Source: an uncultured Bacteroidales bacterium (lineage in GTDB: Bacteria > Bacteroidota > Bacteroidia > Bacteroidales > F082). From it: a stretch of 47,805 nt of DNA. The DNA is taken from NCBI GenBank assembly GCA_900318265.1, contig ONKA01000016.1, positions 1-47,805 on the forward strand, read 5' to 3'. A program made the position numbers and the translations under genes. The stretch's first letter is position 1. The number at the start of each line of letters is the position of its first letter. Below are positions 4,143-33,971 of the stretch, piece after piece. The notes under the pieces are model-generated. The model was not told where the DNA came from and searched no databases. It saw nothing but the letters and a program-made list of their open reading frames with translations.

Positions 4143-5831
4143 ATGAAATGGGTTCGTTCCATAGCGTTTTTGATGTTGTTGGCGGCCTTTGCCGCATGTG
4201 GCGACAATTCCGCCACGGTAGAGACGCAAAATTTTGCGTCTCTACAAACACGACAATTGCAGGCCATCGACAGCCTGATGTGGCAGCAGCCAGATAGCGC
4301 CTTGGCGCAAATCATTGATTATATGGATTGTACAGACGGTGCATGCACCGTCTCTACCGCGCACTATGCCCATCTCCTTTTGGCCGAATTGCTCTATAAA
4401 AACGATTATGAACAAACCAACCGCGCCGAATTGCTGCGGGCGGTGGCATATTACGATTCGTTGTGCGCCGAAAATGACGACATCGCGTTTTTGGATGCCC
4501 GTGCACATTACATGAATGGTGTGGGATTTTACGAGCGCGACAGTGTGGTGGCGGCCTGCGCCGAATACCTAAAAGCCTTGGAAGTGATGGAAAGCCATTT
4601 CGATGAAAAGGAATTGATTGGACATAAGGCGAGGTTTATGGCGATGGTCTATTCACATTTAACAAGTTTGTTTTCAGATCTCTATCTTCAAGAGCAATGT
4701 ATTTTTTTCGCGAAAGCTGCATTAAAACACTACAGCAAATATGGTGCTCCATCATGGCATCCCTCATGGATATTGACAGAAATTGGGATACAACATGAGA
4801 TATTAGAAAATCTTGATAGTGCAGAATACTATTTTCAAAAAGCAACTGAAACTTTGAACGACACGAATTGTCTCTCGTACAGGGATATTGCCAGTCTTTG
4901 CACATATCTTTCATACAGAAAAGACCATAATCCACAACTTGCATTAGAAAGAATGTATGGAATACTTGCTCAAGCAGAGAACGACAAGGAATATTATTCA
5001 AGAAGTTCAACAATTGGAGAAATCTTCTATCTTGAAAAACAATATGATTCAGCATGGGTGTATCTGTGCCGAATTTATGAGAATTCGCAATTTGATGATA
5101 TTAAAAAGCAAGCAGCGGAAAGGTTGTTGGAAATCTGCAAGACCCAAGGTCGTGATTCCGAAATTCTTGAATATGCCAATTATTTAGCACCCTATGCCAA
5201 TCAATTGGAGAATCATAGCGCCATGAGATCACAGCTAATAGAATTGTACAATACCTTTCGACAGAAAGCACTTGAACGTCAGTATCAGCAAATCATCATC
5301 AAGAACTCACGACGAACCGTAGCATTGTTATTTGGACTACTTATTTTTATGGTTGCCATTGTTGTCTTATTCCATCATAAAGATAAGCGGAGTTTGAGAC
5401 AACTTAAATCTGAAAGTCTTGGAGAAGTGCAAAACCATTTTGGGGAAAACAGTCTTGAACATTTTTTGGCAGAGCCTCTTTGCCAAGAAATCCTTCATTC
5501 CATCGTAGACAAAAACATCAAGCGGTCGGCCACGCCCGCCGATTATCCCGAACTTGTGCTCAACGAAAGCCAGCTCCAACAATTGGCTTTGGTCGTCAAC
5601 CGCTATTTTGGCTCATTCGAAAGTCAGCTTGAGCAGCGAGGTTTAAAGTCCAATCCCGTTTTGGTCAATCTCTGCCATCTCTATCTGCTCGGCATGGATG
5701 AAAAACAAACCGCCATCCTCCTCAATAGGGATTATTCATCCATCAAACGGTATGAAAAGAAACTGAAAAACGCATTCGAAACCCAAGAAAACATGGTTTC
5801 ATTTTTGAGAAACCACGTTTCAAGTATCTGA
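4143..5831 (+). CDS. Membrane-anchored TPR protein with C-terminal HTH (transcriptional regulator type)
   Basis: 562 residues from the ATG at 4143. It begins with a lipobox-type signal (Cys19 in AFAAC), followed by a long helical TPR-like region (~40-380), one transmembrane helix (~392-414, ALLFGLLIFMVAIVVLF) and a cytoplasmic basic tail. The tail ends in a helix-turn-helix-like segment (~500-555; LLGMDEKQTAILLNRDYSSI). This plan is common in Bacteroidetes, where an external sensor half is joined to a DNA-binding half. Two 28-bp palindromes (4218-4245 and 4330-4357) are translated in frame as VETQNFASLQ and TDGACTVST. By hand count, GC falls from about 53% before 4620 to about 36% between 4680 and 5100, so the sensor region is compositionally distinct. 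It probably controls the DUF3244 and lipoprotein genes that follow. Confidence 0.78.
   Translation: MKWVRSIAFLMLLAAFAACGDNSATVETQNFASLQTRQLQAIDSLMWQQPDSALAQIIDYMDCTDGACTVSTAHYAHLLLAELLYKNDYEQTNRAELLRAVAYYDSLCAENDDIAFLDARAHYMNGVGFYERDSVVAACAEYLKALEVMESHFDEKELIGHKARFMAMVYSHLTSLFSDLYLQEQCIFFAKAALKHYSKYGAPSWHPSWILTEIGIQHEILENLDSAEYYFQKATETLNDTNCLSYRDIASLCTYLSYRKDHNPQLALERMYGILAQAENDKEYYSRSSTIGEIFYLEKQYDSAWVYLCRIYENSQFDDIKKQAAERLLEICKTQGRDSEILEYANYLAPYANQLENHSAMRSQLIELYNTFRQKALERQYQQIIIKNSRRTVALLFGLLIFMVAIVVLFHHKDKRSLRQLKSESLGEVQNHFGENSLEHFLAEPLCQEILHSIVDKNIKRSATPADYPELVLNESQLQQLALVVNRYFGSFESQLEQRGLKSNPVLVNLCHLYLLGMDEKQTAILLNRDYSSIKRYEKKLKNAFETQENMVSFLRNHVSSI
4218..4245. repeat. GTAGAGACG palindrome, copy 1 (intragenic)
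   Basis: A perfect 28-bp palindrome with outer arms GTAGAGACG/CGTCTCTAC and centre CAAAATTTTG. It lies inside the TPR regulator just after the lipobox region and is translated in frame (VETQNFASLQ). Confidence 0.9.
4330..4357. repeat. GTAGAGACG palindrome, copy 2 (intragenic)
   Basis: 28 bp with one arm mismatch (GTACAGACG versus CGTCTCTAC) and centre GTGCATGCAC. It lies in the TPR regulator and is translated as TDGACTVST. The reading frame relative to the element differs from copy 1. Confidence 0.85.
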
Positions 5832-5899
5832 TAATCTATCTTTTACATCCTGCAACTTTTTGCAACTATTCTTTTTGACATTTTTCGGTTTTTTCGTTA

Positions 5900-5907
5900 T
5901 ACTTTTG
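5900..5907 (+). promoter_or_regulatory. Bacteroidetes -7 box for the DUF3244 gene
   Basis: Reads TACTTTTG, with TTTTTG (ending at 5877) about 22 bases upstream as the -33 element. The start codon is at 5937, giving a leader of roughly 22 bases. Confidence 0.6.
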
Positions 5908-5936
5908 TAGCAACAAAATCAAATAACGTTACAACT

Positions 5937-6314
5937 ATGAAGTATTTAAAAAACCGTCTCATCGTATTGATGCTTATGTTAATGATTCCCAATGCATGGA
6001 CTTTGGCTGATAATTGTTATCTATCAGACAATCACCATCCCATTCAAATTAAGGCTTCACATGTTCAAGGAGTCCCAAAAGGCTTCACCATCCAAGCCTC
6101 TATCAACGGTCATACGCTTACTGTTGCTTTCTCCCAAAACATTGGACAAGTTGAAGTTGAAATCACAACGGTAACTGGCAGCACGGTGGATTGCCTTTCT
6201 ATCCTCACACCCAATGGTCTGCAAAGCTACATTCCTAACACGGGAGACTACATTGTCACTTTCACCCTTTCCAATGGGGATGAGTATTACGGAGAATTTA
6301 CGGTCAGCGATTAA
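5937..6314 (+). CDS. DUF3244-like exported protein
   Basis: A 125-residue secreted or periplasmic protein. An N-terminal signal peptide (hydrophobic to about residue 22, IPNAWTLAD) precedes one small beta-sandwich. Strands are visible as TIQASINGHTLTVAF, GQVEVEITTVTGSTV and DYIVTFTLSNGDEYYGEFTV. This matches the DUF3244 pattern of small Ig-like proteins that sit next to TPR regulators in Bacteroidetes. Their function is not known. It has its own -7 box at 5900-5907 and ends two bases before the LytTR gene, so the two form a transcription unit downstream of the TPR regulator. The function is inferred from context only: a possible ligand or sensor partner of the regulator. Confidence 0.7.
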   Translation: MKYLKNRLIVLMLMLMIPNAWTLADNCYLSDNHHPIQIKASHVQGVPKGFTIQASINGHTLTVAFSQNIGQVEVEITTVTGSTVDCLSILTPNGLQSYIPNTGDYIVTFTLSNGDEYYGEFTVSD

Positions 6315-6316
6315 GC

Positions 6317-6751
6317 ATGGATCCTTTTGACGGACGGATTATCATCAGTGAGACCAAAGGCTTCAAGCAAGTGGAAGTGGCAAGCCTCTCGCATATCATC
6401 TGCGAAGACTACCTTTGCACACTATACATTACTAACGAAGAATCGGTAACCTGCGGCAAAAGCCTACGCTATTTCGAACAAGTCTTGCAGCCTTATCCCT
6501 TTGTCCGCATCCACCACATCGCCATCGTGAACCTCAGTCAGGTAGCTAAAGTTCACTTCAATGGCAGGCAACGCCATGTCGTCATGCACGACGGCACGGC
6601 GTTGCCCATTTCCGTGCGCAAATGGCCCCGCTTCCGAGACATATTTCGCTCTCATACACTTGCCACCAAAAACGACACACTTACAGCTGAAAGCGGCACA
6701 CCTACAAGAAAAACCAACACGCACCAAAACCAAGGATATGGTTTACTGTAA
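6317..6751 (+). CDS. Stand-alone LytTR-type DNA-binding protein
   Basis: A 144-residue protein made almost entirely of a LytTR domain (about residues 5-115). Recognisable elements are SLSHIICEDYLCTLYIT, the loop SLRYFEQVLQPYPFVRIHHIAIVNLSQV and VVMHDGTALPISVRKWPRF. LytTR domains bind direct-repeat promoter sites. No receiver or membrane domain precedes the domain here, so activity may be set by abundance or by a partner. The last ~30 residues are polar and repetitive (ATKNDTLTAESGTPTRKTNT) and look disordered. It is two bases downstream of the DUF3244 gene. Its stop codon overlaps the -7 box (6749-6756) of the next gene, so the two genes are physically but probably not transcriptionally fused. 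Confidence 0.85.
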   Translation: MDPFDGRIIISETKGFKQVEVASLSHIICEDYLCTLYITNEESVTCGKSLRYFEQVLQPYPFVRIHHIAIVNLSQVAKVHFNGRQRHVVMHDGTALPISVRKWPRFRDIFRSHTLATKNDTLTAESGTPTRKTNTHQNQGYGLL

Positions 6752-6756
6752 TTTTG
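6749..6756 (+). promoter_or_regulatory. Bacteroidetes -7 box overlapping the LytTR stop codon
   Basis: Reads TAATTTTG; its first three bases are the TAA stop of the LytTR gene. It would drive the lipoprotein at 6815 with a leader of about 50 bases. Confidence 0.5.
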
Positions 6757-6814
6757 CAGCATCTCTAACGATAGAACAAAAGTAACAACAAAACAAACAT
6801 CAAAATCAAACACA

Positions 6815-7849
6815 ATGAAAACGGCAAAACTTACCATGATGACCACCTTGATGGCCCTAATGCTCCTCGCTGTGGGATGCAAGAAAGAAAACGAAAACAC
6901 GGCAGAAAGACAACAAAACAATTCAACTCCTATGCTTCAGTTCAACTCATTTGATGAAGTAATAGATTACCTCGTAGATGAGAAAAAAAACAAAAGCAAC
7001 AAAGACGGCTTTGTTTCCTATGCTGAATACATGGAAAAAGAATACAAGGACTTGGATCCTGAAAACTTTTTTAAAACAAAAGAGGAGATGATACAGTATG
7101 CTTTAGAACATCATGACAAGTATCAACTTATTTTATGTGAAGACGGAGAATACATTTTCGAAACAAGATTGTATAATCATGATTACAAATATGTTGCAAA
7201 TAAAGATGGAATGTTTCAGGTTAAAAATAAGGTATATAAAATAATCGAAGGAGGCTTGGTGTATACTTTGGAATCACATATCCAAGAGCTGACAGACTAT
7301 GTTGACAACGGATTTAGAAATAATGATGATGTTTTCTCTTTTGTAATATTTGACGATAGCGTAAACACGGACAAAAACAATTGCTTATACTGTTCAAATA
7401 TGCACAATTGGACTAAAATTAATGAAGATAATAAACTGTATTTTGAAATAAAACTATATTTATCAAATAACAACACCAGAGTTACATATAAACATTATGC
7501 AAAACCTTATCATCATAATTTCTTAGGTTGGTTCGGCTGTCTTCGTACAATTACATGCTCGTATAATAATCAAGTAGTTTATAAAGATGCAGCAGGAGAT
7601 TGGCCACGTATAGGAGGAAACCAATGGATACCGCAATACCCATATCGATGGGATTTTCAAGAATCATGGACTAGCACTAGCGGTTTTGAAACTGTTAAAT
7701 ATGAATACGACTTTATACATTCTTGGATGTGGGAATATGAACATCCCAATACAGGAGGATTTGGGTTTAATGTTTTAGACGCAAGGGCTTCAACTCTTGA
7801 TGTTGGTGAAATACACGTATATTGCCCAAAACAATATGAAATTGGCTAA
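6815..7849 (+). CDS. AT-rich lipoprotein of unknown function
   Basis: 344 residues with a lipobox signal peptide (LLAVGC, Cys22). The mature part opens with polar residues (KKENENTAERQQNN), then a region (~40-110) with short helices (FDEVIDYLV, KTKEEMIQYALEHHDKYQLIL). A tryptophan- and tyrosine-rich C-terminal half follows (HNFLGWFGCLRTITCSYNN; SWMWEYEHPNTGG). The layout is reminiscent of Bacteroidetes lipoproteins of the DUF4848 kind, but I cannot confirm that. A line near 7381 has about 28% GC by hand count against ~50% in neighbouring genes, which suggests recent acquisition or fast evolution. It has its own promoter. No enzymatic motif was seen; a surface role is inferred from the signal only. 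Confidence 0.75.
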   Translation: MKTAKLTMMTTLMALMLLAVGCKKENENTAERQQNNSTPMLQFNSFDEVIDYLVDEKKNKSNKDGFVSYAEYMEKEYKDLDPENFFKTKEEMIQYALEHHDKYQLILCEDGEYIFETRLYNHDYKYVANKDGMFQVKNKVYKIIEGGLVYTLESHIQELTDYVDNGFRNNDDVFSFVIFDDSVNTDKNNCLYCSNMHNWTKINEDNKLYFEIKLYLSNNNTRVTYKHYAKPYHHNFLGWFGCLRTITCSYNNQVVYKDAAGDWPRIGGNQWIPQYPYRWDFQESWTSTSGFETVKYEYDFIHSWMWEYEHPNTGGFGFNVLDARASTLDVGEIHVYCPKQYEIG

Positions 7850-7900
7850 TCAACACTATTTACATAAGTAACTGTTCAGAATTAAACTGCATAATGCTTT

Positions 7901-7967
7901 GACACGGGACTATTAGACGCGGGACAAACCTATTGTCTCGTGTCTCGCGTCCCGAAGTCTCGTGTCT
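7901..7967. repeat. Palindromic element in a 191-base gap
   Basis: Outer arms GACACGGGAC (7901-7910) and GTCTCGTGTC (7958-7967) are near complements, with further G/C-rich inner arms (GACGCGGGACA near 7916; CTCGCGTCCC near 7944). ACATAA at 7862 and TTATGT at 7969 extend the pairing. It occupies most of the gap between the AT-rich lipoprotein and the first barrel gene and could also reduce read-through. Confidence 0.55.
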
Positions 7968-8041
7968 ATTATGTAAGCTCATCTACTTACAATATTCCAT
8001 TCATTATTGGAGTTATTAGAATAAATCAAAATACGACGTAA

Positions 8042-8644
8042 ATGTTTAGGAAGTCGATAATACTATTGGTTTCGCTTTTTTATTGCTATTCGCTCTTTCC
8101 TCAAAACAGTCAAGACGACCTTATGCCTTGGAACATAGAGATTCATTATAGGAAGCAACACGAAGGCAACCTTGATGCCAATTATCATTGTCTCGGCTTT
8201 GGGATGAACTATTCCCTTTCCAAATGGATTGATGCGGGCTTCTTCGTGAATAGCGGGACATACAAATACCAAATGACCGTCTCTTCCAACAACATCATAC
8301 TATTTGATGGAGATAGCCGCGACTTCTTTTGGAAATATGGTTTCAATACCAAATTGCATCCGCTATCTTTGCTATTCCCAAACTTTACGAGCATCGATGT
8401 CTATTTTGACGGATACCTTGGAGCTTTTTCCTATACTTCAGATTATTGGCCAAAAACAAACAAGTTCCTCTATGGCGCAGGTGTGGGTATTGCCTTGTAT
8501 CCGACAAGACACTTCGGTTTGTTTTACGAAAGGGCATACGACAATGTAAACAAAATCACGATTAACCAAAGCAATAAGGTAAAACCTATGAACCGTTTCG
8601 GCATCAACGTCCGTTTCGGCGGGCCGAAGAAATGGAGGAAATAA
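8042..8644 (+). CDS. Small outer-membrane beta-barrel protein (paralogue A)
   Basis: 200 residues: a signal peptide (MFRKSIILLVSLFYCYSLFPQ) followed by amphipathic strands typical of eight-stranded barrels (NYSLSKWIDAGFFVNSG, IDVYFDGYLGAFSYTS, LYGAGVGIALYPTRHFGLFYE). It ends in RFGINVRFGGPKKWRK, nearly identical to the end of the next gene (RFGLNVRFPGPKKWQR), so the two are tandem paralogues sharing a plan of about eight strands. No enzymatic motif is present. A role as an envelope structural protein or small porin is an inference from the fold. It lies 68 bases upstream of its paralogue and is probably co-transcribed with it. Confidence 0.78.
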   Translation: MFRKSIILLVSLFYCYSLFPQNSQDDLMPWNIEIHYRKQHEGNLDANYHCLGFGMNYSLSKWIDAGFFVNSGTYKYQMTVSSNNIILFDGDSRDFFWKYGFNTKLHPLSLLFPNFTSIDVYFDGYLGAFSYTSDYWPKTNKFLYGAGVGIALYPTRHFGLFYERAYDNVNKITINQSNKVKPMNRFGINVRFGGPKKWRK

Positions 8645-8712
8645 TGATTTTGCAATAAAACACCACGCCAAGCGTTAAGGCGATAGAATCAAAGTCCAAC
8701 AATAATTAATCA

Positions 8713-9393
8713 ATGAAAAAACTGGTTTTATTGGCCGCGTTGTTGCTGCCTGTTATGGCTTACGCACAAAGAGACATCCCTTTCACCTCATCAAAGCCCT
8801 TTAACAAGGGCAATTTCAAAATCGATGCGAGCTATTCGCAATTGATGCAGAAAATCCCTTATTCTGGCTATCCCGACTTTCGAGTTGGAATAGGCTATGG
8901 CATTACTAATTGGTGCGTGGTAGGGGTCTTCGGCAGTTTCGGCACCCATGAAAGCCTGATGAAAATAGGAGGTGGAACTATGTACAATGGCACAGATACC
9001 ATTTATGAACCACTTCTTTTTGATGGTAAAATGATTGAGCGCTACTATCATTATGGCATTGATGCAGAGTTGCATCCTCTGACCCTTTTGTTGCCGAATT
9101 TTTATTTCGTCGACATTTATTGCCGAGGCGAATTGGGCATGAGAACCGTAACAGAGCAGTATAAGCCTGATTACGATAGTCCTTCAACCGAGCCAGTCCG
9201 TAATAACTTTCTTTACGGTGGCAGTGTTGGCGTAGCCGTCAACCCATCGAAGTATTTCGGTGTCTTTTATGAATTGGCATTTGACAACCTAAATAAGGAA
9301 TACAAACCCAAAACAGACGAAATAAAGACCAAAGCCATCCACCGCTTCGGTCTCAACGTTCGATTCCCCGGGCCGAAAAAATGGCAACGGTAA
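8713..9393 (+). CDS. Small outer-membrane beta-barrel protein (paralogue B)
   Basis: 226 residues with a clear signal peptide (MKKLVLLAALLLPVMAYAQ) and a barrel of alternating strands (FKIDASYSQLMQ, FRVGIGYGITNWCVVGVFGSFG, FVDIYCRGELGMRTV, LYGGSVGVAVNPSKYFGVFYE). Shared blocks with the preceding protein (ELHPLTLLLPNF against KLHPLSLLFPNF; RFGLNVRF) show tandem duplication. It carries an extra loop around residues 155-170 (PDYDSPSTEPVRNN) that the paralogue lacks, which could be a surface-exposed variable loop. It is followed by a palindromic repeat and then the DUF4249/TonB pair. Confidence 0.8.
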   Translation: MKKLVLLAALLLPVMAYAQRDIPFTSSKPFNKGNFKIDASYSQLMQKIPYSGYPDFRVGIGYGITNWCVVGVFGSFGTHESLMKIGGGTMYNGTDTIYEPLLFDGKMIERYYHYGIDAELHPLTLLLPNFYFVDIYCRGELGMRTVTEQYKPDYDSPSTEPVRNNFLYGGSVGVAVNPSKYFGVFYELAFDNLNKEYKPKTDEIKTKAIHRFGLNVRFPGPKKWQR

Positions 9394-9399
9394 TCTTTT

Positions 9400-9492
9400 G
9401 TAGGGCTGTCACATCGTGGCAGCCGCTTGAAATTGTTTTTCCCGCGGCTGCCGTGGTACAACAGCCCTACAACCGTGGTACGACAGCCCTAC
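9400..9492. repeat. GTAGGGCTGT inverted repeat with an extra half copy
   Basis: GTAGGGCTGT (9400-9409) pairs perfectly with ACAGCCCTAC (9461-9470), and inner GGCAGCCGC (9418-9426) pairs with GCGGCTGCC (9444-9452). The right arm is repeated almost exactly at 9473-9492 (CCGTGGTACGACAGCCCTAC), giving one and a half elements. It fills the gap before the DUF4249 gene and shares the GTAG...CTAC ends of the 28-bp family. Confidence 0.75.
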
Positions 9493-9516
9493 AGACAATA
9501 AAATCAACATTTTAAT

Positions 9517-17044: not shown

Positions 17045-18370
17045 ATGGCCACTCGCGAACGCATAAAAAAGGGATTTTCGAAACTTCTCAAGGAAGAGAA
17101 GTTGAAGCTTATTGCCAACTATTTTGAGAACCCCGGCGAGGTCGTCAACCTGCTGAAAAGCTATTGGCATCCCGACTCGAAGCAACAGCAGCTCTTCGAC
17201 GAGTTCAGCGAGAATACCATCACCAATTTTTTCATCCCCTACGGCATCTCGCCCAACGTGACCATCAACGGCAAGGACTATGTCGTGCCCATGGTCATCG
17301 AGGAGAGCTCCGTGGTAGCTGCAGCCTCGGCAGCAGCCAAGTTTTGGGGCGAACGCGGCGGCTTCCATGCCGAGGTCATCGACGTGCGCAAGGTCGGACA
17401 GGTGCACTTCGGCTGGAGTGGCGACAAGGAAAAACTAGTGGCCCTATTCCCGAAAATCGAGGAACGTCTGTTGGCCGACACCGCTACCATGACCGAGAAA
17501 ATGCGGAAACGTGGCGGCGGCATCCTTGGGATGAAGCTCATCGACTACACCACACAAATTCCTGACTATTACCAGATTCGCGTCGAATTTGGCACAGGCG
17601 ACGCCATGGGTGCCAACTTCATCAACTCAGCCTTGGAGCAGTTTGGCCACAGTTTGCAGGACTTCTTCGCCGAACAAAAAGACCTCCCTGAAGAGCTCCG
17701 CAAGGTGGAGATCATCATGACCATCCTGTCGAACAACACACCCGACTGCCGCGTAAAGGTCTGGGTGGAATGTCCCGTGGAGCAATTGGACGGCATCGAC
17801 GAGCACCTTTCGGGTGCCGAATATGCCAAGAAATTCAAGAAGGCTGTCGACATCGCCCACATTGACACCGACCGCGCCACCACGCACAACAAGGGCATCT
17901 ACAACGGCATCGATGCAGTGGTCATCGCCACGGGCAACGACTTCCGCGCCGTAGAGGCGGCGGGCCATACCTTCGCCTCGCGCAACGGACATTATGAGAG
18001 CCTTTCGAGCGTCACCCTTGAAAACGGCATCTTCCACTTCGAACTGGAGGTGCCGATGGCCTTGGGCACCGTGGGAGGCCTGACCAGCCTGCACCCCTTG
18101 GCCAAGAAGACGTTGGAACTCTTGGGCAATCCCACCGCCAAAGAACTGATGATGATTGCCGCCACGATGGGTCTGGCCAACAACTTCTCCGCCGTGCGCT
18201 CGCTGACCACCAAAGGCATCCAAGCCGGCCACATGAAGATGCATTTGAACAATATCCTCAACCAACTCAATGCTTCGGACGAGGACAAAAAGAAAGCGCG
18301 GGAATACTTCAAGGACAAGACCGTGTCATACGCAGGCGTTGAACAATACCTTGAATCCTTGAAAAAATGA
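17045..18370 (+). CDS. mvaA: Hydroxymethylglutaryl-CoA reductase, class II
   Basis: 441 residues, in the size range of bacterial class II enzymes, with no membrane region. Family segments include the N-terminal ENPGEVVNLL region, MVIEESSVVAAASAAAKFW (substrate-binding), VEFGTGDAMGANFINSALEQ (cofactor/catalytic DAMGAN), a catalytic lysine region and a C-terminal flap with MKMHLNNILNQL (catalytic His). The enzyme interconverts HMG-CoA and mevalonate. Class II enzymes are often called degradative, but in Bacteroidetes they supply mevalonate for isoprenoids. The stop codon overlaps the start of the GYDIA-type kinase (ATGA), a strong sign of translational coupling and of a mevalonate-pathway operon. 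Confidence 0.93.
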   Translation: MATRERIKKGFSKLLKEEKLKLIANYFENPGEVVNLLKSYWHPDSKQQQLFDEFSENTITNFFIPYGISPNVTINGKDYVVPMVIEESSVVAAASAAAKFWGERGGFHAEVIDVRKVGQVHFGWSGDKEKLVALFPKIEERLLADTATMTEKMRKRGGGILGMKLIDYTTQIPDYYQIRVEFGTGDAMGANFINSALEQFGHSLQDFFAEQKDLPEELRKVEIIMTILSNNTPDCRVKVWVECPVEQLDGIDEHLSGAEYAKKFKKAVDIAHIDTDRATTHNKGIYNGIDAVVIATGNDFRAVEAAGHTFASRNGHYESLSSVTLENGIFHFELEVPMALGTVGGLTSLHPLAKKTLELLGNPTAKELMMIAATMGLANNFSAVRSLTTKGIQAGHMKMHLNNILNQLNASDEDKKKAREYFKDKTVSYAGVEQYLESLKK

Positions 18371-19332
18371 GCCTTTACCGAGCCAACGGAAAATTCCTTT
18401 TGACAGGTGAATACCTCGTCCTGAAAGGCGCGTTGGCCTTGGCTCTGCCGTTGAAATTGGGGCAGACATTGTCTGTAGAGACGCGCCATGGCACGTCTCT
18501 ACAATGGGATGCCTACAAACCTGACGGTCCTTGGTTTTCGGTAACCTTGAACCCTAAAAACCTTGAAATTATCGACAGCGACGACCAACCCAAAGCCGAA
18601 AAACTCAGACAAATCCTGCAAGCCGTCAAGCAATTGAATTCCAAGGCCTTTGAAGGCAACCATTTGATATTCAACACCCATCTCGACTTCGACCCAAATT
18701 GGGGCCTCGGCAGCAGCTCCACCTTGATTGCCAATTTGGCACGATGGGCGAATGTCAATCCATACGAACTGCTGAAAATGACCTTCGGTGGCTCGGGCTA
18801 TGATATTGCTTGCGCCACAGTTGAGCGACCCATTTACTATCAAGTAAAAACCGAGGTCCCTGAGCCCGAGGTTGCTGAGCAACGTCGAAGCATCGAAGGG
18901 CCGACACCAACAGTTGAACCCATTAACTTCACTCCACACTTTGCCAACCATCTGTTTTTCGTCTATCAAGGCCAAAAGCAAAGCTCGTCAAAGGAAATCA
19001 AGGCGTTTTTAGCCAAAGCAAATCCCGTTGATTTACAAAAAGATATTGATGCCGTCTCGGAAATAAGTCGTGCCGTGCCGAAATGCCAAAGTTTGGACGA
19101 GTTCGCTATGCTTATGCAATGCCACGAGCGCATCGTCAGCCGCTGCATTGGGCAAGAACCAGTTCAAAAACATTTCCCCGATTTCGAGGGTGCTTTGAAA
19201 TCGTTGGGCGCATGGGGTGGCGATTTCATTTTGGCCGCCACCGAATGGGACGAAAGCCAAGTGAAAGCCTATTTCAAAGGGAAAGGCTTAGATGTGGTAT
19301 TTGGTTACAAAGAACTGGTACTCAATCCGTAA
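18367..19332 (+). CDS. GYDIA family GHMP kinase (mevalonate-kinase type)
   Basis: 321 residues. GHMP-kinase signatures are YRANGKFLLTGEYLVLKGALAL at the N-terminus, the phosphate-binding loop NWGLGSSSTLIANLARW, and the name-giving motif GGSGYDIACATVERPIYY. GYDIA kinases are a Bacteroidetes group next to HMG-CoA reductase, so phosphorylation of mevalonate or a later intermediate is likely but not proven. Two palindromic elements are translated in frame: a 28-bp copy at 18475-18502 (VETRHGTSLQ) and an expanded CTTCGA-type element at 18855-18902 (around EVPEPEVAEQ), which forms an acidic loop between the GYDIA motif and the C-terminal domain. Its end overlaps the convergent U32 gene by 11 bases. 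Confidence 0.85.
   Translation: MSLYRANGKFLLTGEYLVLKGALALALPLKLGQTLSVETRHGTSLQWDAYKPDGPWFSVTLNPKNLEIIDSDDQPKAEKLRQILQAVKQLNSKAFEGNHLIFNTHLDFDPNWGLGSSSTLIANLARWANVNPYELLKMTFGGSGYDIACATVERPIYYQVKTEVPEPEVAEQRRSIEGPTPTVEPINFTPHFANHLFFVYQGQKQSSSKEIKAFLAKANPVDLQKDIDAVSEISRAVPKCQSLDEFAMLMQCHERIVSRCIGQEPVQKHFPDFEGALKSLGAWGGDFILAATEWDESQVKAYFKGKGLDVVFGYKELVLNP
18475..18502. repeat. GTAGAGACG palindrome, copy 3 (intragenic)
   Basis: 28 bp with centre CGCCATGGCA and one inner mismatch, within the GHMP kinase. It is translated as VETRHGTSLQ, the same frame as copy 1, after the N-terminal beta strand QTLS. Confidence 0.88.
18855..18902. repeat. Intragenic element related to the 1132-1198 repeat
   Basis: Starts GGTCCCTGAGCC and ends CGAAGGGCC, the same outer arms as the 1132-1198 repeat, but with an inserted middle (GAGGTTGCTGAGCAACGTCG) containing its own GTTGCTGAGCAAC hairpin. 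It is 48 bases long, a multiple of three, and is read through in frame in the GHMP kinase. Confidence 0.7.
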
Positions 19333-21076
19333 CAGCAGAAACCGTCATCAAACAATTCCTGCAATCAAATTCGAGGCGGAAGGTGTTCGCTCCGTTGCGG
19401 ATGAATAATGGCGTGGCTTTTTGGCCTGTTTCCTTGCTGCACATCCCATTGGCATAACGGATGCAATGGTGGCAGGTCATAAGGGCGGTGGGAATTTCGT
19501 CGGGATTTGTGACCGTTGTAGAGACGGTGCATGCACAGTCTCTACGGAATCCACGGTTATTCTTATGATTTTCAACCAATTCCTCTGTCAATTTCGCCAC
19601 CAAATCGCGTTTCATCTCGCCAATGACAGAGGCAGGAATGAGACGCGGTTCGCTGAATTTCAATTCCAAATTAATGGGGTTGAAAACCGTGTCACCCCAT
19701 TGCAAGGCCTTCTTGCGGATGTTTTCCGTGGCCTTTTCGGGGTTGTTGGCGGTGATTTTGTCGCATTTTTGCGTAGAGACGCACGGCCGTGCGTCTCTAC
19801 GCAAAAATGCGAACAATTCATACCCCGTTCCCGTTTCCGACAACACCAAATCGATGTCCATCTTGCGGTTACCAGTTGATGCCTCCACCTGTTTCTGCCA
19901 TTCGAGGTCGAGGTTGCGGTAGATTTTTGAGCCACGGAAGGCGCCGTGTGGCCTGTTTGTAGAGACGGTGTGCACACCGTCTCTACCGATGTTTACCACA
20001 TCGGCCCGCAGGCCCACCAATTCGTTATCCTGATTCAAAAAACACAGGCCGTCGCCATTGCGCAGGGTTTTGTCGGTATCGATTTCCATTCGGAGGGGAT
20101 TGCACCAACTGACCTCGCCTACGTATTCGCCCATCGATTTCGGAGTAAAAGGCGAACCTATGCCTTTTTGTCGACCATTGATGAAATAGTCGGTGAAGCC
20201 ACGGTTGAAGGATTTCTCAGGGTTGATATCAAATGTGTAGCTACAATGTCCGTATGATGCCGGTTCCAAATCACTGCGTCGGTTGATGATCTCATCCAGT
20301 TTTTGGCGGTAAAAGGCCGTCACATTCTTCACATAATCAGCATCTTTTAGTCGGCCTTCAATCTTGAAGCTGGTGATGCCCGCATCAATCAATTCCTCCA
20401 AATGCGCGCTGTTGTTGAGGTCTTTCAGGCAGAGCAAGTGTCGGTTCTTAATCAGCACCTTGCCGTTCTCGTCAAGCAAGTCCCAAGGCAAGCGGCACGG
20501 CTGGGCACAGGCACCACGATTGGCGCTGCGATTGCCGATATACTGGCTGAGATAGCACCGGCCGCTGTGGCTGACGCAGAGTGCGCCATGCACGAAAAAC
20601 TCCAATGGCACAGTGGTCTTCTCACGAATCTCCCTAATTTGTTTCAGACTCAACTCACGACCAAGGACAACTTGTTCGAAACCAAGTTGTTCCAATTGCT
20701 GCACCTTCTCCAACGTCAGGTTGTCGCACTGCGTGCTGGCATGGAGCGGAATGGGCGGCAGGTCGAGGTTAAGCAGTTGCATATCCTGTACAATGAGCGC
20801 ATCAACGCCAACGTTCCAGCAGTCGTATGCCATCTTGCTGGCGCGTTCCAATTCGCGTTCATACAACAACGTATTCAGCGTCACATAAACCTTGGCATCA
20901 AACAAGGCCGCGTGGCGGCAAAGGCGTTCGATGTCTTGAATACTATTAGAGGCTTTTTCGCGTGCTCCGAAGTCGGGGCCACCGATATAGACAGCATCGG
21001 CACCATGATTGATGGCAGCTATGCCTACCTCGGCATCCTTTGCAGGCGAGAGCAGTTCTATCTTCATTTTTTTCAT
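19322..21076 (-). CDS. U32 family peptidase-like protein (TrhP/RlhA type)
   Basis: 584 residues. The N-terminal TIM-barrel domain opens with ELLSPAKDAEVGIAAINHGADAVYIG. The U32 signature with its Fe-S cysteines spans about residues 160-200 (FVHGALCVSHSGRCYLSQYI...NRGACAQPC). The DUF3656-like C-terminal region ends with a second Cys cluster (MTCHHCIRYANGMC). Characterised relatives hydroxylate tRNA uridine (TrhP) or 23S rRNA C2501 (RlhA) using prephenate; protease activity is not well supported for this group. Three palindromic elements are translated in frame: RDGVHTVST, RRDARPCVST and RDCACTVST. The last lies near the C-terminus. The gene diverges from the first SGNH gene across a 69-base promoter region. 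Confidence 0.88.
   Translation of the reverse strand: MKKMKIELLSPAKDAEVGIAAINHGADAVYIGGPDFGAREKASNSIQDIERLCRHAALFDAKVYVTLNTLLYERELERASKMAYDCWNVGVDALIVQDMQLLNLDLPPIPLHASTQCDNLTLEKVQQLEQLGFEQVVLGRELSLKQIREIREKTTVPLEFFVHGALCVSHSGRCYLSQYIGNRSANRGACAQPCRLPWDLLDENGKVLIKNRHLLCLKDLNNSAHLEELIDAGITSFKIEGRLKDADYVKNVTAFYRQKLDEIINRRSDLEPASYGHCSYTFDINPEKSFNRGFTDYFINGRQKGIGSPFTPKSMGEYVGEVSWCNPLRMEIDTDKTLRNGDGLCFLNQDNELVGLRADVVNIGRDGVHTVSTNRPHGAFRGSKIYRNLDLEWQKQVEASTGNRKMDIDLVLSETGTGYELFAFLRRDARPCVSTQKCDKITANNPEKATENIRKKALQWGDTVFNPINLELKFSEPRLIPASVIGEMKRDLVAKLTEELVENHKNNRGFRRDCACTVSTTVTNPDEIPTALMTCHHCIRYANGMCSKETGQKATPLFIRNGANTFRLEFDCRNCLMTVSAVTD
19518..19545. repeat. GTAGAGACG palindrome, copy 4 (intragenic)
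   Basis: 28 bp, centre GTGCATGCAC, one mismatch in the right arm. It is translated on the minus strand as RDCACTVST near the end of the U32 gene. Confidence 0.88.
19761..19812. repeat. GTAGAGACG palindrome, copy 5, extended to a 52-bp perfect palindrome
   Basis: The 28-bp core 19773-19800 (centre GCACGGCCGTGC) is flanked by TCGCATTTTTGC and its exact complement GCAAAAATGCGA, so 52 bp are perfectly self-complementary. All of it lies within the U32 coding region (FAFLRRDARPCVSTQKCD). Confidence 0.93.
19959..19986. repeat. GTAGAGACG palindrome, copy 6 (intragenic)
   Basis: A perfect 28-bp palindrome with centre GTGTGCACAC, translated as GRDGVHTVST in the middle of the U32 protein, just before NRPHGAFRGSKIY. 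Confidence 0.9.
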
Positions 21077-24215: not shown

Positions 24216-24218
24216 ACC

Positions 24219-25907: not shown

Positions 25908-25925
25908 TCAGAAAAGACATGTAAC

Positions 25926-27395
25926 ATGGTATTCAGTAGCAACATATTCCTACTCTACTTCATGCCCATCTTCTTCCTCGTGTATTTCATCCTACCGAAG
26001 AAGGTGCGCAACTATTTCCTGCTGCTCGCCTCGCTGGTGTTTTACGCCTGGGGCGCGCCAGAGTTCATCATCCACCTCATCGTGTCGGTCATCGCCAACT
26101 TCTACCTGGTGCGGTGGATGAACAAAACCGAGAAACCTGGTCTGAAGAAACTGCTTTGCGGCATCTCTATCGCTATCAGCATCGGGCTGCTGTTCTACTT
26201 CAAGTACGGCAACTTCACCATGCAGAACATCAACTCGGTGCTGGCCTGGTTCCATGCCGAGCCGCTGCAATGGACCAAAATCCTGCTGCCTATAGGTATC
26301 TCCTTCTTCTCGTTCCAAAGCGTCACATACACCTTGGACACTTACCGAAAGGTGAATGAGCCAATGCAACGGCTGAGCGACTACATGCTTTACATCGTTA
26401 TGTTCCCGCAACTGATTGCCGGTCCCATCGTGCGCTACTGCGACATTGCCGACCAGATTCGCAACCGCGAGTCGCTTTATACGGACAGGTTGCATGGCTT
26501 CTATCGTTTCGTCATCGGTCTGTGCAAAAAGATCCTCATCGCCGACGTCATCGGATTCCAAGTCGACCAGATTTTGGGACCGTCGAACTACGATGTGCTG
26601 ACCTCTGCCCAACTCGCCGACATCGCCAACAAAATCGCAACCATCGACTCGACCAGCGCTTGGATAGCCATCTTCGCCTTCACCTTCCAAATCTACTTCG
26701 ACTTCGCTGGTTACTCCGACATGGCCATTGGTTTGGGCCGCATGATGGGCTTCAAGTTCCCAGAGAACTTCGACAACCCATACGTTTCCACTACCATATC
26801 AGAGTTTTGGAGACGTTGGCACCAGACTTTCAGCGTATTCATCAAGAACTACCTCTACTTCCCCTTAGGCGGTAGCCGTGTGAAGACCGAAGCCCGCAAA
26901 TACTTCAACCTGTGGTTCTGCTTCCTCATCAGCGGCTTGTGGCATGGAGCAGCGTGGAACTTCGTGGTCTACGGCGCCCTGCAAGGCATCTTCATCTGCG
27001 CCGACAAGCTGTTCTTGAAGAAGTTCAACGAGCGATTGGGGCGGATTCCCAGTGTGTTCTTCACCTTCCTCATCATCGTGCTGACGCGCTGCTTCTTCCG
27101 CATCGAGCGCATCGACCTGTCGTGGATGTTCATCAAGCGCCTGTTTGCCTTCGAATTCGCTCCCTTCCATTTCGGCGACAACCCGCATCTCTATGTGACC
27201 ATGATTATAGCCGCCTTCTTCTCATTCTTCACCCTCTCGAAGTTCGGCTTGAAGGTACAAGATAAAGTCTACTTCACCGAATATAACCGCCGTCAGCATA
27301 TCATCGCGTTTGTAATCAGCATACTTGCCTTCATCTTCTGCCTTGGCGCCTTGAATGCCAGTGGCTTTAGTCCATTCATTTATTTCAGATTCTAA
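25926..27395 (+). CDS. AlgI-like MBOAT family O-acyltransferase 2
   Basis: 489 residues and close to MBOAT 1 throughout (same opening MVFSSNIFLLYFMP, SFFSFQSVTYTLDTYRK, FPENFDNPYVS, ISGLWHGAAWNFVVYG). The catalytic His340 is kept, but the second family histidine, in GALHG of MBOAT 1, is Gln353 here (GALQG). This could reduce or retune activity. Membrane topology is as for AlgI. Gene spacing is 18 bases upstream and two bases downstream, so it belongs to the same transcript. Strong similarity to MBOAT 1 points to tandem duplication of an MBOAT-SGNH pair. Confidence 0.92.
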   Translation: MVFSSNIFLLYFMPIFFLVYFILPKKVRNYFLLLASLVFYAWGAPEFIIHLIVSVIANFYLVRWMNKTEKPGLKKLLCGISIAISIGLLFYFKYGNFTMQNINSVLAWFHAEPLQWTKILLPIGISFFSFQSVTYTLDTYRKVNEPMQRLSDYMLYIVMFPQLIAGPIVRYCDIADQIRNRESLYTDRLHGFYRFVIGLCKKILIADVIGFQVDQILGPSNYDVLTSAQLADIANKIATIDSTSAWIAIFAFTFQIYFDFAGYSDMAIGLGRMMGFKFPENFDNPYVSTTISEFWRRWHQTFSVFIKNYLYFPLGGSRVKTEARKYFNLWFCFLISGLWHGAAWNFVVYGALQGIFICADKLFLKKFNERLGRIPSVFFTFLIIVLTRCFFRIERIDLSWMFIKRLFAFEFAPFHFGDNPHLYVTMIIAAFFSFFTLSKFGLKVQDKVYFTEYNRRQHIIAFVISILAFIFCLGALNASGFSPFIYFRF

Positions 27396-27397
27396 CC

Positions 27398-28729
27398 ATG
27401 AAAAACAAGGCCTTTCTCATACAGTTCGTGATTCTCACGGTAGCCTGCGTCGCCATTTTGGTTCAAGGCTTCACCCATTGGGTACCCTTGAAGCTGGCGG
27501 GCTTTGTCGGGCAGCCCGAGAAGGTGCAACTGACTTGGAAGACATACTCCGAAGGGAAATTTCAGGATTATCTCTCCGACTATGCCAAGCAAAAGGGTGG
27601 CTTCCGCGAGCCATGCATCCGGGCCTACAACCAATGCTTGTATTCGTTGTTCAAGAAAACGACCAACGACAACATCGTCTTCGGCGAGAACGGCGAGCTT
27701 TACCTTGAAATGTATCTCCATGAAGTGACGGGCAAGACCCTCAAAGATTGTTACGGTTCGGAAGACTATTTCAAATCCAGGGCACGGAAAGATATTGAAA
27801 AAACCCTGGTGCTCATCGACAGCCTGCGGAAACACAACACGGCCTTCCTTTTCGTGGAGGCGCCTTCCAAGACTTGGGTCTATCCCGAATACATGCCCCA
27901 TCCTTACTGCGACTCCATCATGCCCTTCTGTGTTCAGGACTACTACACACAACTATTTGAGGAGAACGGCATTCCGCACATCGACTTCCTAAGCTATTTC
28001 AAGTCGCTCAAAGGCAAGACAGAATATCCGCTCTATTCGCCCTACGGCACCCACTGGGCAGAGAGCACCATCCCCTTTGTGGCCGACTCGATACTGAGAA
28101 AGATAGAGAGCCTCATCGGGCAGGAAATGCCGCACATCGTATGCCTCGACGAAAACCTGCAAACCCGCTATTCGAAACAGGACGGAGAACTGGAAGACCT
28201 GATGAACCTTTTGTTCCCGCTCCGGAAACCTGCCCTGCCACAACCCATCATGGCCCTCAGCGACACCACATTACGCAAGCCCAACCTCCTCGTCATTGCC
28301 GACAGCTATTTCATCCAATTGCAGGAGTCGGCCTTCGCGAACTGTTTCAACCGTTGTGATTATTGGAAGTACAATAACGAGGTCATTACCAAGGACATTG
28401 AATTCAAAGGGAAGGTGTCGGAATACCTCGAAGCCTACAAGACGATAGATGAAGCTGACCTCATCATGGTCATCAACACGGCACCTTACGCCTACAACTA
28501 CATGTTCGGTTTCTGCGAGACTGCAAACTTGGCCTTCCTCGATCACGACCACCAACGCATGGAGAAACTCATAGAAGAAACCATCGAACGCATCAAAGGC
28601 TCCACAGAATGGTATGAAAGCATCAGAAGGCAAGCAGTGGAAGAACACCGAGACCTTGACTCTCTGTTGAGAGGGCATGCCCGATATGCCATTTGGATGG
28701 ACGAAAAACAAAGACAAGAACAACAGTAA
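27398..28729 (+). CDS. AlgX/DHHW-like SGNH protein 3 (divergent motifs)
   Basis: 443 residues, the shortest of the set. It has an N-terminal membrane anchor (FLIQFVILTVACVAILVQ), then GGFREPCIRAYNQCLYSLFKK. The catalytic-type motifs are YGTHWA (His219, Gly217 in place of Asp) and VIADSYFI (Ser303 in ADS rather than GDS). One C-terminal helical module (~400-440; GSTEWYESIRRQAVEEHRDL) is present. It starts two bases after MBOAT 2 and ends seven bases before MBOAT 3. The Ser-His pair is retained, so activity is possible, but both motif contexts are altered; a substrate-binding or regulatory role is an alternative. Confidence 0.78.
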   Translation: MKNKAFLIQFVILTVACVAILVQGFTHWVPLKLAGFVGQPEKVQLTWKTYSEGKFQDYLSDYAKQKGGFREPCIRAYNQCLYSLFKKTTNDNIVFGENGELYLEMYLHEVTGKTLKDCYGSEDYFKSRARKDIEKTLVLIDSLRKHNTAFLFVEAPSKTWVYPEYMPHPYCDSIMPFCVQDYYTQLFEENGIPHIDFLSYFKSLKGKTEYPLYSPYGTHWAESTIPFVADSILRKIESLIGQEMPHIVCLDENLQTRYSKQDGELEDLMNLLFPLRKPALPQPIMALSDTTLRKPNLLVIADSYFIQLQESAFANCFNRCDYWKYNNEVITKDIEFKGKVSEYLEAYKTIDEADLIMVINTAPYAYNYMFGFCETANLAFLDHDHQRMEKLIEETIERIKGSTEWYESIRRQAVEEHRDLDSLLRGHARYAIWMDEKQRQEQQ

Positions 28730-28736
28730 AAGCACC

Positions 28737-30149
28737 ATGGTATTCAGTAGCAACATATTCCTCTTGTTCTTCTTGCCGATATTTCTGTTGGCCTATTTCG
28801 TCACGCCCCAACGGTTCCGCAACTATACTCTGTTGCTCGCCTCATTGGTGTTTTATGCCTATGGTGCCCCCGATTTCATCCTAATTCTTGTTGCTGCTTG
28901 TGTAGTCAACTTCTTCTTGGTGAAAGGCATGGTCCGAGCCCAAAATCCTAAAACCAAAAAAGGCATCTGCGCCTTGTCGGTCGTACTTGCGCTTTCGCTC
29001 CTGCTCTACTTCAAATATGCCAACTTCTTCGTCGACAACCTCAATGCCTTATTGGGTTGGATGCACCATGTGCCCGTGGGATGGCGCGACGTGGCCTTGC
29101 CCATCGGCATTTCGTTCTTCACCTTCCAGTCGCTTACCTACACCATCGATGTGTATCGCGGTACCACACTGCCCAGCCGTCGTCTGACCGATTACGTGCT
29201 GTATATCATGATGTTTCCACAACTCATCGCTGGTCCTATCGTGAGATACAACAGCGTGGCTGCCCAGATCATCAGTCGACAATCAACTATGGAAGGCCGT
29301 ATGACGGGCTTCTATCGCTTCGTCATTGGTTTGGCAAAGAAAGTGTTGATTGCCAACACATTGGCACAGGTTGCCGACCAAGCCTTTGCCTTGGGTGACG
29401 GACTCTCTACGGGTGCAGCATGGATCGGCATGTTGTCGTACACCTTCCAGATCTACTTCGACTTCTCGGGCTACAGCGACATGGCCATCGGTCTAGGACG
29501 TATGATGGGCTTCAGCTTCCCCGAAAACTTCATGAACCCTTATACCAGTCGAAGCATCACCGAGTTTTGGCGTCGTTGGCACATGACCTTGGGCACCTTC
29601 ATGAAGGAATACCTGTACATTCCCTTGGGAGGCAATCGCAAAGGCGCAGCACGCACCTATCTCAACCTTGTCATCGTCTTCCTATGCTCAGGTTTCTGGC
29701 ATGGTGCCGCATGGACCTTTGTGCTTTGGGGTGCCTACCACGGCCTATTCCAAATCTTCGACCGCATAGGCATGGCCAAGATACTCGACAAGATGGGAAA
29801 GTTGCCTTCCATGCTACTGACCTTCTTAGTAGTCAACTTGGGCTGGGTGCTGTTTCGTGCCGACGGTGTGCAGCAGGCGGGGACGTTCTATCAGGCCTTG
29901 TTTGCTTTCAAGAGTGGGGCTGCGCTTACCTTGGATGCCCATTTCTGGACTGTATTTGTCTTGGCCGTCGTGTTCTCCTTCATCACCTTGCTGAAAGGCG
30001 GACAGAAGCTACAAGACCGTGTGTTTGCCGAGACTTACACCGTCAGACGCAGTTGGGTGATGTTTGCCGTCACCACCTTGTTGTTCATCCTCTCCGTTGG
30101 CTCGCTGATGGTGTCCGACTTTAATCCCTTCATTTACTTCAGATTCTGA
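28737..30149 (+). CDS. AlgI-like MBOAT family O-acyltransferase 3
   Basis: 470 residues from the ATG at 28737. This start is chosen because MVFSSNIFLLFFLP matches the starts of MBOATs 1 and 2, while the upstream in-frame ATG at 28677 lies inside the previous gene. Catalytic region CSGFWHGAAWTFVLWGAYHG with His322 and His335. Other family blocks are PIGISFFTFQSLTYTIDVYRG, FPQLIAGPIVRYNSV and QIYFDFSGYSDMAIGLGRMMG. It is more divergent than MBOATs 1 and 2, suggesting an older duplication. It is followed after four bases by the largest SGNH protein. As with the others, it would deliver acyl groups across the inner membrane. Confidence 0.92.
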   Translation: MVFSSNIFLLFFLPIFLLAYFVTPQRFRNYTLLLASLVFYAYGAPDFILILVAACVVNFFLVKGMVRAQNPKTKKGICALSVVLALSLLLYFKYANFFVDNLNALLGWMHHVPVGWRDVALPIGISFFTFQSLTYTIDVYRGTTLPSRRLTDYVLYIMMFPQLIAGPIVRYNSVAAQIISRQSTMEGRMTGFYRFVIGLAKKVLIANTLAQVADQAFALGDGLSTGAAWIGMLSYTFQIYFDFSGYSDMAIGLGRMMGFSFPENFMNPYTSRSITEFWRRWHMTLGTFMKEYLYIPLGGNRKGAARTYLNLVIVFLCSGFWHGAAWTFVLWGAYHGLFQIFDRIGMAKILDKMGKLPSMLLTFLVVNLGWVLFRADGVQQAGTFYQALFAFKSGAALTLDAHFWTVFVLAVVFSFITLLKGGQKLQDRVFAETYTVRRSWVMFAVTTLLFILSVGSLMVSDFNPFIYFRF

Positions 30150-30153
30150 CACG

Positions 30154-32109: not shown

Positions 32110-32111
32110 CC

Positions 32112-33908: not shown

Positions 33909-33929
33909 AACGTTGCAATAACGTTGCAA
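33909..33929 (-). repeat. Tandem AACGTTGCAA direct repeat in the CotH leader
   Basis: AACGTTGCAA occurs at 33909-33918 and again at 33920-33929, immediately between the -7 box and the CotH start codon. Two close copies of a near-palindromic 10-mer could be an operator or part of the untranslated leader. Nothing else in the window matches it. Confidence 0.4.
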
Positions 33930-33934
33930 AAATA
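33927..33934 (-). promoter_or_regulatory. Bacteroidetes -7 box for the CotH gene
   Basis: Reads TATTTTTG on the minus strand, about 18 bases ahead of the start codon at 33908, and supports that start. Confidence 0.6.
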
Positions 33935-33943
33935 CAAAAAAAT

Positions 33944-33971
33944 GTAGAGACGCAGCGTGCTGCGTCTCTAC
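33944..33971. repeat. GTAGAGACG palindrome, copy 7 (intergenic)
   Basis: 28 bp with centre CAGCGTGCTG and arms GTAGAGACG/CGTCTCTAC. It is the only copy outside a coding region, lying between the S46 gene end (33997) and the CotH promoter. Confidence 0.9.

What the first reader, a model, noticed from the sequence alone, without database searches (positions are those of the whole stretch)
4218..33971. A 28-bp palindrome family living inside protein-coding genes
Seven copies of a palindrome with arms GTAGAGACG/CGTCTCTAC occur at 4218, 4330, 18475, 19518, 19773, 19959 and 33944. Six lie inside coding regions (TPR regulator x2, GHMP kinase x1, U32 protein x3), all translated without a stop. Two frames are used, giving VETxxxxSLQ or RDxxxxxVST peptides, so the repeat sequence itself tolerates translation in several frames. 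The arms are conserved while the central ~10 bases vary yet stay self-complementary, implying selection on pairing rather than sequence. This resembles the protein-inserted palindromic elements of Rickettsia, but with a different sequence and in Bacteroidetes. The inserted peptides fall at domain edges or linkers as far as can be judged.
Basis: partly seen in the sequence, partly recalled or inferred. Interest (0 to 1): 0.78.

Follow-up and report, generated by a model that had tools for sequence, protein, structure and literature searches.

The report
Mobile DNA palindromes inside bacterial proteins
A rumen bacterium's genome is sprinkled with a 28-letter mirror-image DNA repeat of a known mobile kind (a REP element with a likely transposase partner), and about a third of the copies sit inside genes, where they are read in frame as short peptides, in the one protein modelled at loops or a linker.

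Summary
In detail: exactly seven copies lie at the stated places (arms exact in five, one mismatch in two), six of them inside genes. The genome has 62 perfect-arm copies; the reversed-pattern control finds 0.

The element is a GTAG-type REP of the "double-foot" kind (GTAG at both ends), described for TnpAREP/RAYT subclass 2.4 in Cyanobacteria and Bacteroidetes. A likely cognate transposase gene lies on contig C6. It carries one REP in frame between its HuH and Y motifs and has another ending 18 bp before its start; some homologues in relatives show the same layout.

By my count 23 of 62 copies lie inside genes, in the two frames without a stop. Most others lie between same-direction or convergent genes, as REPs do. 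In the modelled U32 protein the three copies map to two beta-hairpin tips and a low-confidence linker.

Two corrections: insertions are not clean 30-bp additions (+15 bp against true empties at one site), and cores are mostly discrete subfamilies.

The surprise: in three loops of one protein, relatives carry the repeat with another core, in another frame (one site), other palindromes, or nothing. That looks new to me, but my literature search was limited.

The parts
4218..4245 (.). double-foot REP, core CAAAATTTTG; encodes VETQNFASLQ shortly after the lipoprotein signal (my reading) of the TPR gene
4330..4357 (.). double-foot REP with one arm mismatch, core GTGCATGCAC; encodes CTDGACTVST in the TPR gene; a paralogue (C39:23634) has a copy at what looks like the matching place (read by eye)
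18475..18502 (.). double-foot REP, core CGCCATGGCA; encodes VETRHGTSLQ in the GHMP kinase; three relatives have it with altered or other cores
19518..19545 (.). double-foot REP with one arm mismatch (site C of the U32 protein, residues 511-520, low-confidence linker)
19773..19800 (.). double-foot REP, core CACGGCCGTG (site B, residues 426-435, beta-hairpin tip); flanks extend the stem by at least 12 bp
19959..19986 (.). double-foot REP, core GTGTGCACAC (site A, residues 364-373, beta-hairpin tip)
33944..33971 (.). double-foot REP, core CAGCGTGCTG; upstream of the CotH/T9SS gene (start read by me at 33908)
4143..5831 (+). host gene: TPR lipoprotein (562 aa; my naming), two REP inserts
   Evidence: no family hit
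18367..19332 (+). host gene: GYDIA-family GHMP kinase (321 aa), one REP insert
   Evidence: NF040656, 334.9 bits
19322..21076 (-). host gene: U32/DUF3656 protein (584 aa), three REP inserts
   Evidence: PF01136 E 5.2e-72, PF12392 E 3e-12
41466..42077 (+). IS200-like transposase resembling TnpA subclass 1.2 (YIKKQKEHH); not the cognate transposase; carries other palindromes
   Evidence: subclass motif from PMC6006769

Best explanation
The repeats are non-autonomous REP elements of the double-foot GTAG type. A REP-associated tyrosine transposase (RAYT/TnpAREP) copies or moves them, probably as single-stranded hairpins whose GTAG ends it recognises. Most copies settle between genes. Those that land in genes survive only where the 28 bp, together with a compensating local change, keeps the frame, avoids the one frame that reads TAG, and falls in a tolerant loop or linker. 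Once in a loop the element can persist while its core is exchanged for that of another REP subfamily, or the insert turns over to another palindrome. Shown: the repeat family, the transposase gene with the repeat inside and beside it, in-frame positions, shared sites in the U32 protein, core differences at orthologous places. Inferred: movement by this transposase, the ssDNA route, loss of host bases at insertion, and core exchange rather than repeated re-insertion.
For: 62 perfect-arm copies, control 0. 59 of the 60 genus genomes searched, own included, have the pattern, and 58 of 395 genomes drawn across the phylum, with a control hit in one genome. Candidate RAYT at C6:57755-58318: NF047646 59.1 bits (cut-off 80), PDB 4er8 TnpAREP E 4.5e-5, motifs NHLH, WQ, YIENNV. 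One REP lies between HuH and Y and one ends 18 bp before the start codon, both with core GTGTGCACAC, the genome's commonest. Of 30 RAYT loci examined (own included), 9 have a double-foot REP between HuH and Y, 10 have one starting within 100 bp of the open frame, and 15 have none in the locus by the pattern. In the genus, 37 genomes with a RAYT hit have a median of 23 REPs and 22 without have 13.5 (Mann-Whitney p 0.008, no correction for kinship). By script 40 copies lie between called genes: 19 convergent, 18 same-direction, 3 divergent. U32 site A without using the arm pattern: 15 of 83 loci have the 28-mer with at most 2 arm mismatches at one fixed junction, with five core types. Site C is filled in two frames in different lineages.
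Against: 22 of 59 same-genus relatives have no RAYT hit at E 1e-5, and 21 of these still have REPs; draft genomes may miss the gene. 15 of 30 RAYT loci show no double-foot REP by the pattern. The own RAYT scores below the NCBIfam cut-off and its motifs deviate from subclass 2.4 (NHLH; V where the table has P). No pair of very close genomes with and without a copy was found, so insertion itself is not seen. No transposition was measured.
Confidence: 0.82

Rival explanations
1. Palindromes made and kept perfect by DNA polymerase template switching between arms (quasipalindrome correction) rather than by a transposase; loops of proteins are simply where such mutations are tolerated.
For: At 19773 the window's two flanks extend the stem by at least 12 bp, while relatives L070-L072 have the repeat without complementary flanks; no other of the 62 copies has more than 3 extra complementary bp. 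L230 has a paired change in both arms at site B. Several other inserts at the same loops are also inverted repeats of other sequence. Template switching in coding DNA is documented in yeast (PMC8604942, abstract seen).
Against: It cannot create the same GTAGAGACG arms at 62 places or in 58 of 395 genomes of a phylum, nor explain the REP in and around RAYT genes.
Confidence: 0.1
2. Selection for the hairpin in mRNA or DNA (attenuation, stability, recombination signal) keeps the palindrome in genes; the peptide is a by-product.
For: Different palindrome families occupy the same loop. At site A, 15 loci keep the arms with at most 2 mismatches although right flanks have diverged (right-flank identity 0.79 over the 17 loci compared). 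The 98-99% arm identity is no evidence, because the search pattern demanded the arms.
Against: 20 of 83 loci are empty-like at site A; most copies lie outside genes; 15 of 62 share a mismatched pair. Conversion among copies or recent spread would also keep arms alike.
Confidence: 0.08
3. Ordinary conserved protein sequence that happens to be palindromic at the DNA level.
For: At U32 site A the REP peptide ends in TVST where empty homologues have TVSC; in the sorting-domain proteins the length from VYPNP to GQ differs little with and without it. All three GHMP orthologues read have the insert.
Against: Same DNA in unrelated genes and between genes; two reading frames at site C; empty orthologues at site A.
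Confidence: 0.02

Closest known systems
Double-foot REPs of TnpAREP/RAYT subclass 2.4 (Quentin et al. 2018, PMC6006769, passages seen; it assigns Bertels RAYT group 4 to this subclass)
   Same: GTAG at one end and its complement at the other; Bacteroidetes host; REPs flank the transposase gene and also sit in frame inside it between HuH and Y motifs
   Different: Own RAYT has NHLH and YIENNV where their table gives NH[IFV]H and YIxNNP; in-frame copies in many other proteins and core differences at orthologous sites, which the passages I read do not describe
GTAG REPs with intragenic copies (Di Nocera et al. 2013, PMC3733652, parts 1-4 of 8 and passages seen)
   Same: 20-40 bp palindromes ending in GTAG, mostly between same-direction or convergent genes, some inside ORFs in frame, linked to RAYTs
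   Different: That paper lists GTAG repeats in Proteobacteria, Cyanobacteria, Chloroflexi and the PVC group, and for Bacteroidetes only the CGTC type; GTAG at both ends here
Rickettsia palindromic elements (RPE)
   Same: palindromes inserted in frame in protein genes
   Different: RPE-4 and RPE-6 are CGTC-type REPs (PMC3733652); different sequence and phylum
Cyanobacterial very small mobile repeats (Elhai et al. 2008)
   Same: very small mobile repeats (from the title)
   Different: seen only as a reference in PMC3733652; the paper is not held, so not compared

Membership tests
GTAG-type REP | 20-40 bp palindrome with GTAG at its foot | tested here: met
   28 bp with GTAG at both ends
GTAG-type REP | many dispersed copies, mainly in non-divergent intergenic places | tested here: met
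   62 copies; 40 classed between genes by script: 19 convergent, 18 same-direction, 3 divergent; 4 of the 40 I read as inside genes. No genome-wide baseline of gene orientations was computed
GTAG-type REP | associated RAYT gene flanked by the same REP | tested here: met
   C6:57755-58318 with a REP ending 18 bp before its start and one inside; two degenerate copies downstream
Double-foot REP of subclass 2.4 | GT[AG]G at one end and C[TC]AC at the other | tested here: met
   definition read
Double-foot REP of subclass 2.4 | REP in frame inside the transposase gene between HuH and Y | tested here: met
   own copy; 9 of 30 loci in all, own included
TnpAREP subclass 2.4 | motifs NH[IFV]H, WQ, YIxNNP | tested here: inconclusive
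   own copy NHLH, WQ, YIENNV, so two of three motifs deviate; several homologues have NHVH or NHIH, and some YIxNNP. No subclass model was run
RAYT (NCBIfam NF047646) | score at or above the 80-bit cut-off | tested here: not met
   59.1 bits, E 4.5e-16; the profile match spans the REP insert. Hence called a likely RAYT only
Rickettsia RPE / CGTC REP | CGTC at the end of the repeat | tested here: not met
   ends are GTAG/CTAC; CGTC occurs inside the arm
GTAG-type REP | mobilised by its RAYT | not testable with these tools
   no experiment; only gene layout and the copy-number link

The most novel reading that the evidence does not exclude
The REPs act as exchangeable loop cassettes. Because the common cores are 10 bp long, swapping the core between REP subfamilies at a fixed place keeps the frame and rewrites about four residues of a protein loop at a stroke. 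RAYT activity (or hairpin template switching) would thus be a slow diversity generator for protein surfaces, with certain loops (U32 hairpins, T9SS sorting domains) as standing docking sites for many kinds of palindrome.
Probability: 0.13. Interest if true: 0.85.

Novelty: new variant of a known kind. Interest (0 to 1): 0.55.

Why it matters
REPs are usually treated as extragenic. Here about a third of the copies lie in genes, and loops of one orthologous protein are filled, refilled and re-cored across relatives, with two reading frames used at one site. This gives a natural record of how short mobile DNA becomes protein sequence and which loops tolerate it. It also offers a dense data set (dozens of rumen Bacteroidales genomes) for asking how RAYTs insert REPs and whether cores are exchanged. 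And it warns that such decapeptides in protein alignments can be mobile-DNA relics, not motifs.

Tried and rejected
Clean 30-bp insertion: 141 distinct sites from all fetched loci (own and relatives) had their flanks joined and searched against those loci; 62 had an aligned place lacking intact arms. Nets of 15, 0, 12 or 18 bp make up 39 of the 62; one gave 30. The 11 zeros are degenerate copies or other palindromes, not empties, and some of the 12-18 rows compare with other inserts (L233, L188). Many rows repeat the same U32 sites in different genomes, and gapped junctions at 67-83% identity are rough. No close pair with and without a copy was found.

PF01797 as marker of the cognate transposase: 4 hits in the genome, none with this repeat within 1.5 kb; three resemble subclass 1.2 and L019 is a different RAYT with its own palindromes. 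The likely partner was missed there: its Pfam match is weak (E 0.002, below the Pfam cut-off).

L019-type RAYT as partner: 15 of 100 genomes have it; in the loci I read (L049, L050, L054-L057) it is flanked by other palindromes, although an arm or copy of the present repeat occurs near two of them (L054, L057). Rejected.

GHMP empty site: of 19 fetched relative loci only 3 held the gene; all three had the insert, two of them degenerate. PDB search for U32 gave nothing at E 0.01 and for GHMP only weak WD40-type and one other hit.

First version of the arm comparison: arm identity (98-99%) is set by the search pattern; one search repeats site A without it (17 loci with at most 5 mismatches: arms 0.88, core 0.48, right flank 0.79; one of the 17, L263, is probably not the repeat).

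Paper searches with nothing on point: the arm sequence itself (143 papers, 20 listed, none on REPs among them), REP/in-frame/Bacteroidales, F082 repeats.
Full report
What is there. The window is contig C7 of a 2.98-Mb, 50-contig draft genome. Its nearest named relatives are uncultured Bacteroidales or Bacteroidia assemblies, many from ruminants, among them "bacterium F082". Arms are exact in five copies (0.00 expected in 100 shuffles). The genome holds 62 perfect-arm copies with a reversed-pattern control of 0; I located all 62 (35 + 27).

Spread. Of 100 genomes searched (own included), 73 have the pattern: 59 of 60 in the genus (one has none) and 14 of 40 others in the order. Across the phylum 58 of 395 genomes have it, with a control hit in one. 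These searches fix the arms; the cores listed differ between groups.

Where the copies lie. A simple codon-usage gene caller trained on this genome's fetched stretches puts 21 of 62 inside genes, 40 between genes and 1 unplaced. Two of the 21 (C7:33944, C41:14015) I read as lying before the true start. Four of the 40 (C7:4218, C6:58017, C39:23634, C41:3127) I read as inside genes. My hand count is therefore 23 of 62. The caller marks 80% of the window as coding, so genes are under-hit. The 40 comprise 19 convergent, 18 same-direction and 3 divergent places; without the four they are 18, 17 and 1. Within genes two frames occur: VETxxxxSLQ type (17 by hand) and RDxxxxxVST type (6). The third frame reads TAG, so a copy in it would end the gene and could not be counted here. 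Seven copies sit at the same place in proteins that by motif (my reading, no model run on them) end in T9SS sorting domains (VYPNPTNGILF-VET...SLP-xYRITN); two of the seven are on one 9.5-kb contig with identical near flanks, so not independent. One more (C26:57599) sits in another loop of such a domain.

The likely transposase. On contig C6 an ORF of 188 aa (57755-58318, minus strand) has the HuH motif NHLH, then WQ and YIENNV. It matches NCBIfam REP_Tyr_transpos at 59.1 bits (cut-off 80), Pfam Y1_Tnp only at E 0.002, and the solved E. coli TnpAREP 4er8 at E 4.5e-5. A perfect repeat lies in frame between HuH and Y, a second (58337-58364) ends 18 bp before the start codon, and two degenerate ones lie downstream. 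Matches occur in 55 of 100 genomes searched, own included. Of the 30 best loci, 9 have a double-foot repeat between HuH and Y, 10 have one starting within 100 bp outside the open frame, and 15 have none in the locus by the pattern. Where several copies surround one gene they often share one core (for example L197, L200, L203). Two loci from other families of the order (L220, L222) carry a sister repeat with arms GTAGAGAC. In the genus, genomes with a hit have more repeats than those without (medians 23 and 13.5, n 37 and 22, p 0.008, no correction for kinship), yet 21 of the 22 without a hit still have some.

What this is in known terms. Di Nocera et al. 2013 (PMC3733652; parts 1-4 of 8 and passages read) describe GTAG REPs, their RAYTs, their bias to non-divergent intergenic places and some in-frame intragenic copies. 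Quentin et al. 2018 (PMC6006769; passages read) describe for TnpAREP subclass 2.4, found in Cyanobacteria and Bacteroidetes, "double foot" REPs with GT[AG]G and its complement, and REPs inserted in frame in the transposase gene between HuH and Y. The present element meets these features; the transposase's own motifs fit the subclass only in part.

Inside one protein. I compared the U32 protein in 83 distinct loci. At site A (19959), 20 loci are empty-like (for example RADVVNGNTVSCNRPHG), 29 are longer, and 34 have another sequence form there. Taking a fixed junction and not the arm pattern, 15 loci have the 28-mer with at most 2 arm mismatches, with five core types: GTGTGCACAC in nine, TGCCATGGCG in three, and GTGCATGCAC, CAAAATTTTG and CGCGGCCGTG in one each. 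L255 keeps more host sequence and looks like a separate event. In three loci with longer inserts (L081, L229, L239) the last bases of the repeat (CCGTCTCTAC or more) remain after a different left part, as if another palindrome had overwritten half of it. Site B (19773) has 14 loci filled by the strict pattern, all in one frame, with several core types. By simple tags, other relatives have there a GTAGGGAC-type REP (L233, L235, L268) or an ATTGCGAG-type repeat (L236, L245, L251, L258, L260, L266, L269), and some have tandem or inverted repeats (L083, L088). Site C (19518) has 12 loci by the strict pattern: 7 in the RD/VST frame and 5 in the VET/SLQ frame, in different lineages, so the linker was hit at least twice. 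An AlphaFold2 model from 45 sequences (pLDDT 82, pTM 0.81) puts A (residues 364-373) and B (426-435) at tips of beta-hairpins and C (511-520) in a linker with block pLDDT 63-65.

Insertion is not simple. At site A the gain over true empties (L232, L238, L245) is 15 bp, not 28 or 30. Gains of 12, 15 or 18 bp recur elsewhere, but some of those comparators carry other inserts and many rows are the same site in other genomes; one row gives 30. Since 28 is not a multiple of three, surviving in-gene copies must come with, or later acquire, a compensating change. Whether the transposase removes host bases or selection kept such events I cannot tell.

A template-switch trace. At 19773 the flanks of the window's copy extend the stem by at least 12 bp (TCGCATTTTTGC...GCAAAAATGCGA); relatives L070-L072 have the same repeat without complementary flanks there. 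None of the other 61 copies has more than 3 extra pairs. This fits copying of one flank onto the other, a known kind of mutation at quasipalindromes (PMC8604942, abstract; others in the listing). Together with subfamily structure (16 core types, 48 of 62 copies in four) it can explain self-complementary cores without selection on pairing.

Judgement. The element is a new member of a known kind. Its behaviour in the U32 gene - several cores at one junction, two frames at one linker, other palindromes in the same loops - I did not see described in the passages read or in the ten paper searches, which cover open-licence papers only and of which I saw listings. I therefore call it a new variant, with the cassette reading kept as an open, less likely idea.

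Noticed in passing
window 41464-42098: A transposase resembling TnpA subclass 1.2 (YIKKQKEHH) lies between GCGTGTC..GACACGC inverted repeats, with three CCCCACA..TGTGGGG palindromes near its 5' end; the table in PMC6006769 gives no REP for subclass 1.2.
   Followed up: partly
window 18858-18902: The GHMP gene carries a second in-frame repeat-like insert (CCCTGAGCC..TCGAAGGG type, giving VPEP..EGPTP) with a further short stretch nested in it that three relatives lack.
   Followed up: partly
window 1223-8623: 7.4 kb at 95% DNA identity to genome G031 (C26) while the U32 region of the same pair is 77%: recent transfer or a mixed draft genome.
   Followed up: partly
window 22749-30149: Three diverged copies of one gene (repeats D1-D3) alternate with other genes, a local triplication.
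   Followed up: no
L049, L050, L054-L057: Another RAYT group in the genus lies beside its own palindromes (GGTTCGCAAGCGTCCCGC and GCAATCGGCCCGATTGC types): several REP-transposase pairs seem to coexist.
   Followed up: partly
L054 1302, L055 2218-2282, L057 1210-1251: Genes beside these RAYTs that look like T9SS sorting-domain proteins (my reading) carry double-foot and GTAGGGAC-type repeats in about the same stretch.
   Followed up: no
L064 1162-2157: A RAYT-like frame with repeated QVSAPA-type peptides, perhaps in-frame expansions of yet another repeat.
   Followed up: no
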